64,000 nt of DNA from Roseburia sp. (lineage in GTDB: Bacteria > Bacillota > Clostridia > Lachnospirales > Lachnospiraceae). Shown in pieces: positions 13,375 through 63,560 of the stretch; within the stretch, counting starts at the first letter, position 1, and each line of letters begins with the position of its first letter. The position numbers and the translations under genes were made by a program. Below the pieces are notes generated by a model. It had not been told where the DNA came from, searched no databases, and was given only the letters and a program-made list of their open reading frames with translations. The DNA is taken from assembly GCA_017937095.1 (NCBI GenBank), contig JAGBEG010000012.1, positions 62,001 through 126,000 of the forward strand, written 5' to 3'.

Positions 13375-13417
13375 GATACGCGTCGATTGCCACGATATGA
13401 TACATATCCTGACACAC

Positions 13418-13523
13418 TCTTCTTTCATCCAGACTATACTGTCGGCTTCGGAGTCTCACCGAATCATGCCTTGCGGCTCGTGGGCTATACCACCGGTAGG
13501 GAATCGCACCCTGCCCTGAAGAT
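13418..13523 (-). ncRNA. FMN riboswitch (RFN element)
   Basis: The minus strand reads the RFN consensus in order: AGGGCAGGGTG, ATTCCCTACCGG, GGTATAGCCCACGAGCC, GCAAGGC, ATTCGGTGAGACTCCGAAGC, CCGACAGTATAGTCTGGATG, AAAGAAG. The position upstream of ribD and the terminators between them fit transcriptional control of the rib operon by FMN. Confidence 0.97.
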
Positions 13524-13581
13524 TATTCTTTTATTTTCTTTTCTTACTATATTGCTTTTTCACACAGATGTCAACCTGTAA

Positions 13582-27581: not shown

Positions 27582-28733
27582 TTATGCCTTTTTTATACCC
27601 TTTTTCTGTTCGTACATACGCGCATCCGCAATCTTAATCAGTTCCTCAACCTCGCAGACTCCGTTCTCGCCATACTGCACGCAGCCGACGCTGACCGCCA
27701 GCTTCCATGGCTGCTCTTCCTGCCAGTCCATGCATGCTACGCTCTCTTTGAACTCCCGGATCCTCGCCCAGACCTCGTCGTCCTCTTTTCCTTTTATAAT
27801 GACGACAAACTCGTCGCCGCCATATCGCGCTAAAAATGCGCTCAAGCCGCCAAATGACTTTTTCAGTTGATCCGCGACCATTTTCAGAACCATATCGCCG
27901 ACGACATGACCATATGTATCATTCACTTTCTTAAACTTATCCACATCCATCAGGATAAAATGGCAGTTCGTTCCCTCCATGCCGCGCTCCTGCAGCGTCT
28001 TTAAGTACTCGTCGAGCCGTCTTCTGTTATTCAGACCGGTAAGACCGTCCTGTGTCACCTGATCCTTCTGAATATTGAGGTACACCGTCAGAAGCGCCAC
28101 CACAACAGCCGCCCAGAACAGATCTATCTTGGGCCAGAAGACCTTTAACACCAAAGCGCCCGCCGGAAGACAGACTGTCGCCGCAAGGCATCTGCATTCC
28201 CGCTTCTTCTCCTGTACCGGCTGTCTGAAAGAGCCCAAAAGCGCCAGAGCGGACGCCGCAAGCAAATATCCCGCTGCCACCGCCGCATACAATTCAAAGA
28301 GGAAGCCTTTCCTGATATAGTTATTCGCATCCACAAAAAACACTGCGCCCGTAAACGGATTCGATACATACAATACCAGCGCACAAAGCAGCGGAATCGC
28401 CGGGATAAGCACCCGCTTTCCATACTGCCCATCGCCGTTCGTCGCTACGTCGCGAACATAAAGCAGCCACAGAAACGCTGCAAATTCCATGATAAAGAAC
28501 GTCGTCAGACCACATATCAAAAGGAGCGAATGCATTCCAAAGGATCTTCTTCCCTGTATCATGCACGCAATCGAATTTGCCCCAAGGAGAATCGCAATCA
28601 GCAGCATAATAAAACGAAGCGCCCTGTTTCTCCACGTATAAGAGAGCGTGCGTTCCGTGTTCAGCCGCATCATGATAATCGCGATCATCGGTATGAGATT
28701 CATCTGCAAATATGTTACTGATTCCACCCGCAT
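27582..28733 (-). CDS. Membrane diguanylate cyclase (GGDEF)
   Basis: 383 aa. Six or seven N-terminal helices (to about residue 210) and a C-terminal GGDEF domain (about 220-375; LTGLNNRRRLDE, ILMDVDKFKKVND, ARYGGDEFVVI). The catalytic GGDEF is intact, so it should make c-di-GMP from two GTP. The RxxD product-inhibition site before the motif is absent (GLSA). AGGAGG precedes the ATG. It is 19 bases downstream of a second GGDEF gene. Confidence 0.92.
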   Translation of the reverse strand: MRVESVTYLQMNLIPMIAIIMMRLNTERTLSYTWRNRALRFIMLLIAILLGANSIACMIQGRRSFGMHSLLLICGLTTFFIMEFAAFLWLLYVRDVATNGDGQYGKRVLIPAIPLLCALVLYVSNPFTGAVFFVDANNYIRKGFLFELYAAVAAGYLLAASALALLGSFRQPVQEKKRECRCLAATVCLPAGALVLKVFWPKIDLFWAAVVVALLTVYLNIQKDQVTQDGLTGLNNRRRLDEYLKTLQERGMEGTNCHFILMDVDKFKKVNDTYGHVVGDMVLKMVADQLKKSFGGLSAFLARYGGDEFVVIIKGKEDDEVWARIREFKESVACMDWQEEQPWKLAVSVGCVQYGENGVCEVEELIKIADARMYEQKKGIKKA

Positions 28734-28752: not shown

Positions 28753-29901
28753 CTAACCCCGCGTCTTCTTCTTCCTTACCTTCTCCGCATACATCCGCTT
28801 ATCCGCTTCCTTGATCAGATTCTCTGCTCTCCGCCCTGCCTCATGCCAGAACGCATATCCAACGCTCAGGGAGAGTTCATAAGACTTCTTGCGGTTCGCA
28901 TTGAACTTCTCCACCTCGGTCTGAATCTTCTCAATTGCCGCGCCGACTTCCTTCTCGTCAAACCAGTCCCCGATTATCACAAATTCGTCGCCGCCATAAC
29001 GCGCAAGAAGCGCCCTGTCCCTTCCAAAGACATGACGCAGTATATCCGCGGTCTCCCAGAGCGCCTCATCTCCGACCGCATGTCCCATCTGGTCGTTAAT
29101 ACGCTTGAAATCATCCACGTCGATCATCAAAAGTCCCCACTCGTGCTCGGGGTACAGCTCAATCTTCTTAGCGAGCTGCGCATCAAACTCCCTGCGGTTG
29201 TTAAGCCCCGTAAGTCCGTCTGTTGTAATCTGATGGTTCTGTGTATTGATATAGATAAAAAGAATCGACAGTGCAAAGCACGGTCCCGTCGTCCACCAGC
29301 CCTTTGCAAAATGCTGAATGGTAATGCCGCAGAGCGCGCCTATGCCAAACCCCAGCATATAGGTAACTTCTCTGCGCCCCTCCTTGGAAACCTCATGCGA
29401 ATAAGCACTCGCCACAACAGCCACGCTTCCGATAAGGAATAAAATTCCCACCATATTCGGAAGTGCTTCCAGTTGTCCGCTCCTGTAATAGCCTGCCCTG
29501 GAGATAAAGAATATGCTGTGCGTCCACGGCGTTATAAGTATGAGAAACGCAGTAAGCACAGCGCCACCAAACGTCATATAGCGCGCTGCATCCAGCCACG
29601 GTCCCGGATTCCTGACTTCAAGCTTGCGGCACACATACATCAGCCAGACAAACGGTACTGCGACCACAAGCAGCATATGGATGATGTGGAACACATACTG
29701 CCCGGAAATCGGTACTCTGTGCAGACTCTGCAAGCCATAACGCAAAATATCCGCCACCATCAGCGCGATCGCCAGAATTGTCAGCATGTTGAACAGCCGG
29801 TTTCCTGAGGTTCTGTCCTCCCGCTTGTGATTGTTGACATAAATAGTGAGGAGTATCGCAATCGGAAATAAATTAATACTCAGATGTGTTATTAATTCCA
29901 T
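28753..29901 (-). CDS. Membrane diguanylate cyclase (GGDEF), second copy
   Basis: 382 aa with the same layout as its neighbour: seven-helix sensor (about 5-215) and GGDEF domain (LTGLNNRREFDA, LLMIDVDDFKRIND, ARYGGDEFVII). The RxxD inhibition site is also missing (RDRA). I chose the ATG at 29901 (MELITHLS), which has GAGGAGG six bases upstream, over a longer frame that includes the promoter leader. The two proteins look like an old tandem duplication. Confidence 0.92.
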   Translation of the reverse strand: MELITHLSINLFPIAILLTIYVNNHKREDRTSGNRLFNMLTILAIALMVADILRYGLQSLHRVPISGQYVFHIIHMLLVVAVPFVWLMYVCRKLEVRNPGPWLDAARYMTFGGAVLTAFLILITPWTHSIFFISRAGYYRSGQLEALPNMVGILFLIGSVAVVASAYSHEVSKEGRREVTYMLGFGIGALCGITIQHFAKGWWTTGPCFALSILFIYINTQNHQITTDGLTGLNNRREFDAQLAKKIELYPEHEWGLLMIDVDDFKRINDQMGHAVGDEALWETADILRHVFGRDRALLARYGGDEFVIIGDWFDEKEVGAAIEKIQTEVEKFNANRKKSYELSLSVGYAFWHEAGRRAENLIKEADKRMYAEKVRKKKTRG

Positions 29902-30005
29902 ATCGCTCCTCCTCACTTTTGTATCTGCTATGCCATGGGTGTGCGCATGGGCGCTCACGGCAAATGCCACGGACGCTTTGCGTTTATGGCATAATATCTG
30001 GCGAT

Positions 30006-30082: not shown

Positions 30083-32077
30083 TTACTGATACTTTCTGCG
30101 GAACTGCACCGGTGTCATCTCATATGCCTTCTTAAACAGCCGGTTGAAATGCTCCACATTCTCATAGCCCACATATGCGGCAATCGACTCCACGGTCTGG
30201 TTCGTCTCCTTTAACATCGTGCGCGCCTTTTTCATCCTCGCCTTTTTCACTGCATCCTGAAACGTCATGCCCGACTTTTCTTTGATATACTTGGACAGGT
30301 ACGGCTTCGACAGATTAAAATTGTCCGCCAGCACATCCAGCGTCACATCCGCATAGTGATTCTGGATATAATTCATGATATCGACGATGCGCTCCTCGCG
30401 CCCCTCGACGATATTCTCGCTCTTTACCATCTTATTTGCAGCGGACACCAGCGCCGCAATGGAGCTCTTGATAATATCCTCGTCAATGCCGACTCCCCAG
30501 AATTTTCTGCCCTTGCAGATGATCTCCACATATGCCGCCGCTTTGGAGGAGGAACCTTCCGAAATCGCGTGCTCCTGATAGGTCGCAAGCTCATAGCTCA
30601 CGCCAAAATACATCTTGATGGCATTGCTGACCGCATCAAGGCGTCCGTTTCCGGTCGTCTCGATCGTGCGTCTTTCTTTGTTCTGCTCAATCGTCACCTT
30701 CGCGGTAATTCCGTCCTTCTGCTCGAAGTGGCACTCCGGAATATGGAAAATATCGCTGATATTGATGTAGTGCTCCTCGAAAATGCGGTAAATCGCATCC
30801 GGTGAAAGCTCCTGATGACGGCGGTCTGATACGCCCTTCACCAGATAACCTACCTCCTCTTTCATCTTATCCGGCAATGCCATACCGAAATTCTGCTTTA
30901 AGATGAAGGCAACGCCGCCCTTGCCGGACTGGCTGTTGATGCGGATCACATCGGACTCATACTCTCTTCCGACATCCTTCGGGTCGATCGGCAGATACGG
31001 CACATCCCAGCGCTCCCCGCTCTTTCCGGCTTCTCTCCATGCCATTCCCTTGGAAATCGCATCCTGATGCGAACCGGAAAATGCGGTAAATACCAGATCG
31101 CCCGCATAAGGCGTGCGCTCATATACCTTCATGCCCGTAAACCGCTCGTATTTCTCACGGATCGGGTTGATATTGGAAAAATCAAGCTTCGGGTCAACGC
31201 CATGGCACACCATGTTCATTGCGACCGTCACAATGTCCACATTTCCGGTACGCTCTCCGTTTCCGAACAGAGTTCCCTCCACGCGGTCCGCGCCTGCGAG
31301 GATGCCGAACTCCGCATCGCTGATGCCGCAGCCCCTGTCATTGTGCGGGTGAACGCTCAGAATGACGTTATCGCGGTATTTCAAATGCTTATGTATATAC
31401 TCGATCTGGCATGCGAACACATGCGGCATCGCGATCTGTACCGTCGTTGGAATGTTGATGATCGCCTTGTGCTCTGCATCCGGCTGCCATACGTCCAATA
31501 CCGCATTGCAGACCTCAACGGCATAATCAACCTCTGTTCCCGGGAAGCTCTCCGGGCTGTACTCGAAGGTAAAGTTGCCGTCCGTCTCCGCCGCAAGATT
31601 CTTAAGCAGGACCGCTCCGTCAACCGCAAGCTGTTTGACCTCTTCCTTGCTCTTCTTAAAGACCTGCTCACGCTGTGCGACAGATGTAGAGTTGTACAGA
31701 TGAATCACAGCATGCGGCGCGCCCTTTACCGCCTCAAAAGTCTTCCTTATAATATGCTCTCTTGCCTGCGTCAGAACCTGAACGGTGACATCATCCGGTA
31801 TCATGTTCTGCTCGATCAACGCCCGCATAAAATTGTATTCTGTGTCCGACGCCGCCGGGAAGCCGACCTCAATCTCCTTAAAGCCGATATCCACAAGCAT
31901 CTGGAAAAACTCCAGCTTCTCGTCAAGTCCCATCGGCTCAATCAGCGCCTGATTCCCGTCTCTTAAGTCCACACTGCACCAGATTGGCGGCTTTTCAATG
32001 CTGTCCTTTTTCACCCAGTCATATGTCACCTCCGGCGGCATGAAGTAAGATTTTCCGTATTTTGCTGCAATATTCAT
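30083..32077 (-). CDS. 2-isopropylmalate synthase fused to an AraC-type DNA-binding domain
   Basis: 664 aa in one uninterrupted frame. Residues ~30-310 are the LeuA TIM barrel with WCSVDLRDGNQ (metal Asp) and SVHPHNDRG (HxH metal ligands). Residues ~440-550 are the LeuA regulatory dimer domain that binds leucine in relatives. Residues ~561-664 are a complete AraC double HTH (VLADNFNLSKPYLSKYIKEK, IAAYVGYENVEHFNRLFKKA, TPVQFRRKYQ). Ordinary LeuA of this type ends near 550-560. The first leucine-pathway step therefore appears physically joined to a DNA-binding module. ATG at 32077 follows AGGAGG. No other leu gene is adjacent, and there is no T-box in the leader. Confidence 0.93.
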   Translation of the reverse strand: MNIAAKYGKSYFMPPEVTYDWVKKDSIEKPPIWCSVDLRDGNQALIEPMGLDEKLEFFQMLVDIGFKEIEVGFPAASDTEYNFMRALIEQNMIPDDVTVQVLTQAREHIIRKTFEAVKGAPHAVIHLYNSTSVAQREQVFKKSKEEVKQLAVDGAVLLKNLAAETDGNFTFEYSPESFPGTEVDYAVEVCNAVLDVWQPDAEHKAIINIPTTVQIAMPHVFACQIEYIHKHLKYRDNVILSVHPHNDRGCGISDAEFGILAGADRVEGTLFGNGERTGNVDIVTVAMNMVCHGVDPKLDFSNINPIREKYERFTGMKVYERTPYAGDLVFTAFSGSHQDAISKGMAWREAGKSGERWDVPYLPIDPKDVGREYESDVIRINSQSGKGGVAFILKQNFGMALPDKMKEEVGYLVKGVSDRRHQELSPDAIYRIFEEHYINISDIFHIPECHFEQKDGITAKVTIEQNKERRTIETTGNGRLDAVSNAIKMYFGVSYELATYQEHAISEGSSSKAAAYVEIICKGRKFWGVGIDEDIIKSSIAALVSAANKMVKSENIVEGREERIVDIMNYIQNHYADVTLDVLADNFNLSKPYLSKYIKEKSGMTFQDAVKKARMKKARTMLKETNQTVESIAAYVGYENVEHFNRLFKKAYEMTPVQFRRKYQ

Positions 32078-32194
32078 ATTTTCCTCCTGTTACTTCCCTC
32101 TATGTTCCTACAGCCGGAGCGATATCCCCCTGCAGTGAAAATAATTCAAGAAAGTTGATTTCTATTATTTATTTTGTATATACTATCATACGAA

Positions 32195-32217
32195 ACGCAC
32201 CGATGCAAGGTGCGTTT
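32195..32217. terminator. Terminator between nth and leuA
   Basis: AACGCACC-GATGCAA-GGTGCGTT with TTTATC on the plus strand and GTTTCG on the minus strand. It separates the nth transcript from the leuA promoter region. Confidence 0.65.
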
Positions 32218-32239
32218 TTATCAAATAGATTGATTTATT

Positions 32240-32887
32240 TTATCCTTTCTTTTCCACTCCGGCTTTTTTGCAGATCTCATTCAGGCAGCATTCCTCACAA
32301 TGCGGCGCAGTACGCGCCGTGCAGACCTCGCGTCCGTGGTCTACGAGCCTATGGCAGAAATCATTGCTCTCCTCCGGGGGAATCAACTTCCAGAGCGCCA
32401 TTTCCACCTTCTTCGGCTCCTTGATTCCGTCGACAAGCCCCATCCTGTTTACAAGACGGATGCAGTGCGTATCCGTCACAATCGCAGGCTTGCCGAAGAC
32501 GTCTCCCATAATCAGGTTCGCGCTCTTCCTTCCGACGCCCGGAAGCGCGAGGAGCGCGTCAAAGTCCCCGGGCACTCTGCCCTGATACTGTTCCTGCAAT
32601 ATCTTCATACAGGCGCTGATATCCCGCGCCTTGCTGTGTCCTAATCCGCACGGCTTAACGATCCGCTCGATATCCTCCACATCCGCCGCCGCAAGCGCCG
32701 CCACATCGGGATATTCCTTATATAAATCCTGCACCACCACATTGACCCTGGCATCGGTGCACTGCGCCGCCAGCCGGACGCTCACCAAAAGCTTCCACGC
32801 GTCATCGTAGTCTAATGTGCACCCGGTGTCCGGGTACGCCGTCTTCAACCGCTCTATGATCTGTAATGCAAGCTCCTTTTTTCTCAT
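32240..32887 (-). CDS. nth: Endonuclease III
   Basis: 215-aa DNA glycosylase/AP lyase for oxidised pyrimidines. Helix-hairpin-helix LPGVGRKSANL with the catalytic Lys, catalytic Asp in VTDTHCIR, and a C-terminal [4Fe-4S] site. The cysteine spacing reads C-x7-C-x2-C-x5-C, one residue longer than the usual first gap. ATG at 32887 has GGAGCGG upstream. The 151-base region to the next gene upstream is a short-repeat tract. Confidence 0.93.
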   Translation of the reverse strand: MRKKELALQIIERLKTAYPDTGCTLDYDDAWKLLVSVRLAAQCTDARVNVVVQDLYKEYPDVAALAAADVEDIERIVKPCGLGHSKARDISACMKILQEQYQGRVPGDFDALLALPGVGRKSANLIMGDVFGKPAIVTDTHCIRLVNRMGLVDGIKEPKKVEMALWKLIPPEESNDFCHRLVDHGREVCTARTAPHCEECCLNEICKKAGVEKKG

Positions 32888-63412: not shown

Positions 63413-63444
63413 ATAGTTCGTTGTTAATATAGAATATGAAAATG

Positions 63445-63541
63445 CTAGGGGTGCATCGTTTGTGCCGTAAGACGCGCAGTTTGCTGAGAGATAGATATCG
63501 ACCCTTATTACTTGAACCGGATAATACCGGCGTAAGGAAGC
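63445..63541 (+). ncRNA. TPP riboswitch (THI element)
   Basis: The plus strand has CTAGGGGTGC, GCTGAGAGA, ACCCTT, CTTGAACCGGATAATACCGG and CGTAAGGAAG in family order. Upstream of thiT. Confidence 0.97.
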
Positions 63542-63560
63542 TTTTCTCCTGTAGTTGATG

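What the first reader, a model, noticed from the sequence alone, without database searches (positions are those of the whole stretch)
30083..32077. 2-isopropylmalate synthase with a built-in AraC DNA-binding domain
One open frame of 664 codons joins a complete LeuA (metal motifs and leucine-binding dimer domain, to about residue 550) to a complete AraC double HTH (about 561-664). LeuA is feedback-inhibited by leucine. If leucine binding also moves the HTH, the enzyme would be its own transcription regulator, reading pathway state directly. The gene has no T-box or other leu gene nearby, so some other control is needed. The join has no stop or frame change between the domains.
Basis: partly seen in the sequence, partly recalled or inferred. 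Interest (0 to 1): 0.85.

Follow-up and report, generated by a model that had tools for sequence, protein, structure and literature searches.

The report
Leucine enzyme with built-in gene switch
In many gut bacteria the enzyme that commits carbon to leucine carries a DNA-binding domain on its own tail, and a matching DNA site sits at its own promoter, so the enzyme very probably controls its own gene.

Summary
One open frame (30083-32077, minus, 664 codons) joins a complete long-type 2-isopropylmalate synthase to a complete AraC double HTH. It is no artefact: the 80 best loci kept of 227 found elsewhere all carry it, as do at least 76 of 298 family genomes. The HTH is under strong purifying selection (median dN/dS 0.015).

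New here: a conserved, roughly palindromic site (O1, TTAAAATAAATCAAnnnnnTTGATTAAA) lies just upstream of the weak -35 of these genes, usually 48-50 bp before the -10. On a tree of rows I chose, 71 of 79 fused and 0 of 49 unfused relatives have it. Eleven of 12 exact matches in 100 genomes lie upstream of a fused leuA. In four fused genes without O1 the HTH has decayed; three others lack O1 with an intact HTH. A second site, O2, sits 73-76 bp downstream in 35 of 80 loci without a T-box string.

Best reading: the enzyme binds its own promoter and controls its own synthesis, instead of or beside a T-box. Binding itself, leucine as the switch, and its direction are inferred. Ten paper searches listed no description.

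The parts
30083..32077 (-). leuA-araC fusion gene, 664 codons
31157..31984 (-). catalytic HMGL-like domain, residues 32-307
   Evidence: Pfam; R39, D40, E176, H243, H245, N279 (and H337, Y361 beyond the domain) invariant in 47 fusions
30896..31099 (-). IPMS_D2 subdomain, residues 327-394
   Evidence: Pfam
30428..30811 (-). LeuA_dimer (allosteric, dimerisation) domain, residues 423-550
   Evidence: Pfam; GNGRLD 476-481 invariant in 47 fusions
30380..30427 (-). linker, residues 551-566: variable in sequence, nearly fixed in length
   Evidence: same length in 108 of 109
30095..30379 (-). AraC/XylS-type double helix-turn-helix domain, residues 567-661
32213..32246 (-). operator O1 (AGGATAAAATAAATCAATCTATTTGATAAAAACG), just upstream of the -35; overlaps the last 7 bases of the upstream ORF 32240-32887 (endonuclease III-like; name mine)
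   Evidence: PWM 31.7 bits, best in the window, next 7.7; the only zero-mismatch hit of the pattern in the genome
32203..32208 (-). weak -35-like hexamer TTGCAT, 17 bp before the -10
   Evidence: read; across loci the best -35 matches TTGACA at 3-4 of 6 in 89 of 109
32180..32188 (-). extended -10, TGATAGTAT
   Evidence: read; TGn in 101 of 109 loci with a recognised -10
32139..32162 (-). second operator O2 (AGAAATCAACTTTCTTGAATTATT), 75 bp from O1 core to core, downstream of the -10
32083..32088 (-). ribosome-binding site AGGAGG

Best explanation
The gene makes a working 2-isopropylmalate synthase that is also the dedicated regulator of its own promoter. The dimer held by the LeuA_dimer domain carries two AraC-type DNA-binding domains on short linkers. 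They bind O1, which lies against a weak -35 at a fixed distance from an extended -10, as an AraC-family class II activator would; where O2 exists, the protein may also hold O2 about seven helical turns downstream. Shown by sequence: both halves intact and under selection; O1 specific to fused genes; HTH decayed in four loci that lack O1. Inferred: physical binding; activation at O1 (about 60 %; repression about 40 %); and that leucine in the regulatory domain, which inhibits catalysis, also weakens activation or favours an O1-O2 loop, so that one protein sets both activity and amount of the first enzyme of leucine synthesis.
For: Fusion conserved: the 80 loci kept of 227, 23 in-frame of 100 genera, at least 76 of 298 family genomes. 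Selection: median dN/dS 0.015 in the HTH (14 pairs), 0.025 in the catalytic part (17). O1, up to 3 mismatches: 23 of 25 HTH-bearing against 1 of 25 HTH-less leuA in the family sample (the one is a poor match 472 bp upstream). Out of sample with a frozen matrix: 16 of 20 fused and 0 of 14 unfused reach 12 bits. On the tree 71 of 79 against 0 of 49. Exact matches in 100 genomes: 11 of 12 lie within about 0.85 kb upstream of fused leuA (places). Geometry: O1 core to -10 is 49 bp in 85 of 109 loci, 48-50 in 102. O2 at 73-76 bp in 35 of 80 loci without a T-box string; between offsets 25 and 119 its core was seen only 69-78 bp from O1. Decay: L045, L047, L049, L054 lack O1 and have 11-18 substitutions at 39 conserved HTH positions, against a median of 0 in 103 loci with O1, from at least two events.
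Against: No binding, expression or ligand data. The matrix was trained on fused loci, so searches are partly circular (searches are not). Of 79 fused genes on the tree 8 score under 12 bits: four have decayed HTHs, L284 just misses (11.98), but L288, L294 and L298 have near-intact HTHs (3-4 substitutions) and scores of -20.7, 7.1 and 3.5. The 20 new fusions gave no further case of joint decay. L128 has 11 HTH substitutions yet a 27.6-bit O1. Independent pairs are few: 4 on well-supported branches, O1 agreeing in 3.9 on average, p 0.125; 6, p 0.031, only if the four decayed HTHs are scored as lacking, a choice made after seeing them. O2 is absent from 43 of 80 loci without a T-box string.
Confidence: 0.8

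Rival explanations
1. O1 is read by a separate conserved regulator, and the fused HTH binds elsewhere or serves another role.
For: Binding was not measured; three fused loci with near-intact HTHs (L288, L294, L298) lack a good O1.
Against: O1 is absent from 49 of 49 unfused relatives, seven of them inside the fused group; it stays before leuA while the gene neighbours vary; four loci without O1 have decayed HTHs.
Confidence: 0.1
2. The fusion is a pathway-wide regulator, acting also on other leucine or branched-chain genes.
For: A 16.5-bit site with a directly repeated half-site (22 bp apart) lies between ilvC and leuS of this genome, and one of 14.2 bits in its closest relative.
Against: In this genome leuA holds the only zero-mismatch site; the ilvD stretches and the rest of the leuCD-ilvC-leuS stretch scored below zero; 2 of 30 leuS loci exceed 12 bits; sites at up to 1 mismatch away from leuA are no commoner in HTH-bearing genomes (17 in 25) than in the rest (70 in 75; my count).
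Confidence: 0.15
3. The protein is a simple autorepressor: it blocks RNA polymerase from O1 and O2 when leucine or enzyme is plentiful, with no activation.
For: O2 lies downstream of the -10; PutA and BirA are enzyme-repressors (passages of PMC6978683).
Against: O1 is the better conserved site, is fixed relative to the promoter and adjoins a weak -35, as at AraC-type activated promoters (recalled).
Confidence: 0.35
4. The HTH is a vestige or a mere structural tail without DNA binding.
For: It has decayed in four of the loci examined.
Against: Strong purifying selection with conserved presumed recognition helices in most lineages.
Confidence: 0.03
5. Sequencing or assembly error joined two genes.
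For: L131 and L138 show the HTH in another frame.
Against: Same junction, same frame and same linker length in 108 of 109 fusions, from many assemblies.
Confidence: 0.005

Closest known systems
Mycobacterium tuberculosis LeuA (1sr9, 3fig), long-type 2-isopropylmalate synthase
   Different: No AraC domain: the match covers the chain to its end (644 residues) and the model only to residue 551
AraC/XylS family (YesN/AraT, AraC, Rns)
   Different: The sensor and dimeriser is a biosynthetic enzyme; O1 looks palindromic, where AraC half-sites are direct repeats (recalled)
PutA, BirA and other trigger enzymes
   Same: One polypeptide is enzyme and regulator of its own pathway (PMC6978683, passages)
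   Different: Other enzymes and other DNA-binding folds (recalled); here the apparent target is essentially one promoter, its own
Ada (methyltransferase with AraC-like domain)
   Different: DNA repair protein switched by self-methylation (recalled), not an allosteric biosynthetic enzyme
T-box leader (RF00230) before leuA
   Same: Controls amino-acid genes by tRNA charging (recalled); occupies this position in 18 of 25 close unfused relatives
   Different: RNA sensor; not found in the window

Membership tests
Long-type 2-isopropylmalate synthase (LeuA) | HMGL-like, IPMS_D2 and LeuA_dimer domains above cut-off | tested here: met
   47 of 47 fusions match these domains at E up to 0.001
Long-type 2-isopropylmalate synthase (LeuA) | Subfamily model NF002991 above its curated cut-off | tested here: met
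   801 bits against 455
Long-type 2-isopropylmalate synthase (LeuA) | Metal and catalytic residues (roles recalled from the M. tuberculosis enzyme) | tested here: met
   alignment; invariant in 47 fusions
Long-type 2-isopropylmalate synthase (LeuA) | Enzyme activity and leucine feedback inhibition | not testable with these tools
   needs assay; GNGRLD of the leucine-site region conserved
AraC/XylS transcription regulators | Double HTH matching HTH_18 above cut-off | tested here: met
   77.7 bits against 33.6; 47 of 47 fusions match
AraC/XylS transcription regulators | Seven-helix AraC DNA-binding fold | tested here: met
   (predicted model)
AraC/XylS transcription regulators | Binds specific DNA and controls transcription | not testable with these tools
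   indirect only: O1 specificity and joint decay
Trigger enzymes (enzyme that regulates genes of its own pathway) | One protein with enzyme and regulatory parts, both under selection | tested here: met
Trigger enzymes (enzyme that regulates genes of its own pathway) | Regulation responds to substrate, product or end product | not testable with these tools
   needs leucine-dependent binding or expression data
T-box regulated leuA | T-box leader upstream | tested here: not met
   no RF00230 match in the window at gathering score

The most novel reading that the evidence does not exclude
The enzyme is an AraC-like molecular switch whose sensor is an allosteric enzyme: LeuA dimers on O1 and O2, seven helical turns apart, form a small repression loop when leucine fills the regulatory domain, and activate from O1 when it is empty. 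Catalytic inhibition and transcriptional control would then be two outputs of one allosteric transition, and the cell would measure both leucine and the amount of enzyme with one molecule.
Probability: 0.33. Interest if true: 0.92.

Novelty: new variant of a known kind. Interest (0 to 1): 0.8.

Why it matters
If true, the committing enzyme of a core amino-acid pathway in a major family of gut bacteria senses its end product and sets its own gene, with no separate regulator. It shows a protein autoregulator and an RNA switch (T-box) sharing or exchanging the same job at one gene, with natural losses and possible intermediates, and it gives a ready-made test of how allosteric inhibition of an enzyme can be wired into transcription. 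It also offers a compact, possibly leucine-responsive part to study.

Tried and rejected
Frame error or assembly artefact: rejected. A wider regulon in this genome: the pattern gave 21 hits at up to 3 mismatches, reversed control 11, only leuA at zero mismatches; the ilvC-leuS site is left open. Operon explanation: downstream neighbours vary (77 of 80 loci parsed). T-box exchanged for the fusion as a repeated evolutionary trend: counts differ, but the three usable independent pairs mostly show no difference (2.4 of 3 on average, 0.6 in the trend's direction), so inheritance may explain it. Half-site order: the matrix fits a palindrome best (self-correlation 0.55 over 29 columns, next 0.38), but a direct repeat of about 22 bp reaching into the -35 can also be read in some loci; undecided. 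The whole-model fold searches showed enzyme matches in their top 50 rows, so the HTH was folded alone. Distant unfused leuA genes (about 50-54 % identity) were not tested one by one for O1; one search covers their genomes. Paper searches: listings only, at most 15 rows each (searches found 184 and 301 papers and listed 10 and 8), apart from passages of PMC9026213 and PMC6978683.

Full report

It is not an accident of one genome. Of 227 relatives found in named genomes, the 80 kept all reach residue 659 or beyond; the other 147 were not seen. In one genome from each of 100 genera of the family, 91 have a match and 23 are fused in frame; in 298 family genomes 76 are (my count of the rows, whose strict E-value makes it a lower bound). 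Among 243 genomes drawn from the class, three outside the family carry it (G284, G165, G286), two of them beside a second, unfused LeuA. On a tree of the LeuA part all 50 fused rows and five unfused ones fall in one supported group (SH-aLRT 95), so one gain and several losses is the simplest history; in the larger tree the label needs seven changes, four of them forced by well-supported branches. All 47 fusions in one alignment match the five Pfam models.

Both halves are kept by selection. Median dN/dS over close pairs is 0.025 in the catalytic part (17 pairs), 0.039 in the dimer domain (16), 0.104 in the linker (13) and 0.015 in the HTH (14). The linker varies in sequence but hardly in length (same in 108 of 109). 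Residues corresponding to the catalytic and metal ligands of the M. tuberculosis enzyme (correspondence from the alignment; roles recalled) and the GNGRLD segment of the leucine-site region are invariant in 47 fusions.

The operator. Reading the upstream regions showed a recurrent element, later modelled as a 34-column matrix with consensus A.atTAAAATAaATCAAtaAAAtTGATTAAAtTt; 107 of 113 HTH-bearing loci exceed 6 bits and the best of 35 unfused ones has 9.8 (training and test overlap). In the window it is at 32213-32246 (31.7 bits, the best site of the window) and is the only zero-mismatch match to the simpler pattern in this genome. In the family sample 23 of 25 HTH-bearing leuA genes have it with up to 3 mismatches and 1 of 25 close HTH-less ones has a poor match 472 bp away (25 of the 26 close unfused genes were tested). 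Trained on L001-L055, the matrix gives 12.8 bits or more to 30 of 33 other fused loci (L133, L172 and L173 fail); one of 35 unfused loci reaches 13.4 and the next 5.0; of 1650 shuffled upstream regions 95 % stay under -1.1 and the highest reaches 17.7. With the matrix frozen, 34 newly fetched loci gave 16 of 20 fused at 12 bits or more and 0 of 14 unfused (best 3.6). Across 100 genomes a pattern search returned 12 exact matches, 11 of them within about 0.85 kb upstream of a fused leuA (places compared); the twelfth, in G022, is not on the contig of its leuA.

Promoter geometry. From the O1 core to the -10 hexamer the distance is 49 bp in 85 of 109 loci where a -10 was recognised (of 125 with O1), 48-50 in 102; the -10 is extended (TGn) in 101, and the best -35 at spacers 16-18 matches TTGACA at only 3 or 4 of 6 positions in 89 of 109. 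O1 thus lies where an AraC-family class II activator would sit (recalled). A second element with the core nCAA-n4-6-TTGA lies 73-76 bp further down in 35 of 80 fused loci without a T-box string and in 2 more at 69-70; 43 of 80 lack it. Over offsets 25 to 119 the core was seen nowhere but 69-78 bp from O1 in that group. It was seen in 1 of 27 loci with a T-box string, at another distance. In the window it is at 32139-32162, downstream of the -10. Seventy-four base pairs are about seven turns of DNA; a loop is possible but not shown.

Joint decay. Four fused loci with at least 1.2 kb of upstream sequence lack O1 (L045, L047, L049, L054) and carry a T-box string (two more, L016 and L031, have too little upstream sequence to tell). 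Their LeuA parts are ordinary (81-83 % identical to the window), but at 39 HTH positions conserved in 90 % or more of fusions they have 11 to 18 substitutions, several turning residues of the presumed recognition helices acidic, against a median of 0 and mean of 1.0 in 103 loci with O1 (Mann-Whitney p 1.5e-4, not corrected for kinship). They represent at least two events. Against this: L128 has 11 substitutions with O1 present; and among 20 new fusions L288, L294 and L298 lack a good O1 with only 3-4 HTH substitutions, while none shows new joint decay. Unfused genes nested among fused ones (seven) also lack O1. Independent pairs on well-supported branches are four, O1 agreeing in 3.9 on average (p 0.125); scoring the four decayed HTHs as lacking makes six (p 0.031), a choice made after seeing the data. 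The pair test is therefore modest; the specificity of the exact matches and the out-of-sample test carry more.

T-box. By Rfam at gathering score, 18 of 25 close unfused leuA genes and 2 of 25 HTH-bearing ones have a T-box. By a short string, 12 of 14 new unfused and 7 of 20 new fused ones do, and 29 of the 80 named fused loci. The tree-based pair test has no power to show a trend. The window's genome uses T-boxes elsewhere: 15 matches at E up to 0.001, four over the gathering score, one of those before leuS.

Targets. In the loci parsed, leuA has no constant neighbours. leuCD of this genome lie on another contig with a divergent LysR-type gene (product names are mine from the sequence). Scans of the leuCD-ilvC-leuS stretch and both ilvD regions gave one site above zero, 16.5 bits between ilvC and leuS, 14.2 bits in the nearest relative and below 10 in the other 28 leuS loci. 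So the fusion looks like an autoregulator with, at most, a small regulon here.

How it most likely works. The dimer of LeuA presents two AraC domains; they bind O1 beside a weak -35 and, I think more likely than not, recruit polymerase when leucine is scarce. Leucine in the dimer domain inhibits catalysis (established for this enzyme family, recalled) and plausibly changes the pose of the HTHs through the short linker, ending activation or favouring an O1-O2 loop. Binding, direction and ligand are not shown by any result here.

Novelty. Enzymes that regulate genes are known (PutA, BirA: passages of PMC6978683; Ada recalled), but ten full-text searches listed no paper whose title or abstract start describes a LeuA-AraC fusion; lists were capped, bodies were not read, and most subscription journals are not held, so it may be in print elsewhere. 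I rate it a new variant of a known kind.

Noticed in passing
L131 (G050) and L138 (G063), just after the leuA stop: The HTH follows leuA in another frame in two genera (frame +1 with a possible ATG of its own; frame -1 beside a run of A). Gene fission, frameshifting or sequence error; O1 is still present upstream.
   Followed up: partly
L224 around 15941 (own genome C7, between ilvC and leuS): A directly repeated O1 half-site, 22 bp apart, just upstream of the leuS T-box; partly kept in some close relatives.
   Followed up: partly
L288, L294, L298 upstream of leuA: Fused genes with a near-intact HTH but no good O1 within 900 bp; in L288 the upstream stretch looks coding almost up to leuA.
   Followed up: partly
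window 13413-13527 minus and 63437-63555 plus: FMN and TPP riboswitches above gathering score.
   Followed up: no
window 27582-28733 and 28753-29970, minus: Two neighbouring proteins with membrane-like fronts and GGDEF-like C-terminal parts downstream of leuA; names are mine from the sequence.
   Followed up: no
L171 and L175 (G284, G165; another family of the class): Genomes with both a fused and an unfused LeuA, which may point to horizontal transfer of the fusion.
   Followed up: no
L224 3570-6460: leuCD with a divergently transcribed LysR-type gene, so the rest of the pathway may have its own regulator.
   Followed up: no
L124 1229-1331 and L135 3263-3426: A THF riboswitch near one fused leuA, and a Clostridiales-1 RNA between the T-box and an unfused leuA.
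   Followed up: no
L050 upstream of leuA: O1 with an intact left half and a lost right half, next to the lineage with decayed HTHs: a possible intermediate.
   Followed up: partly
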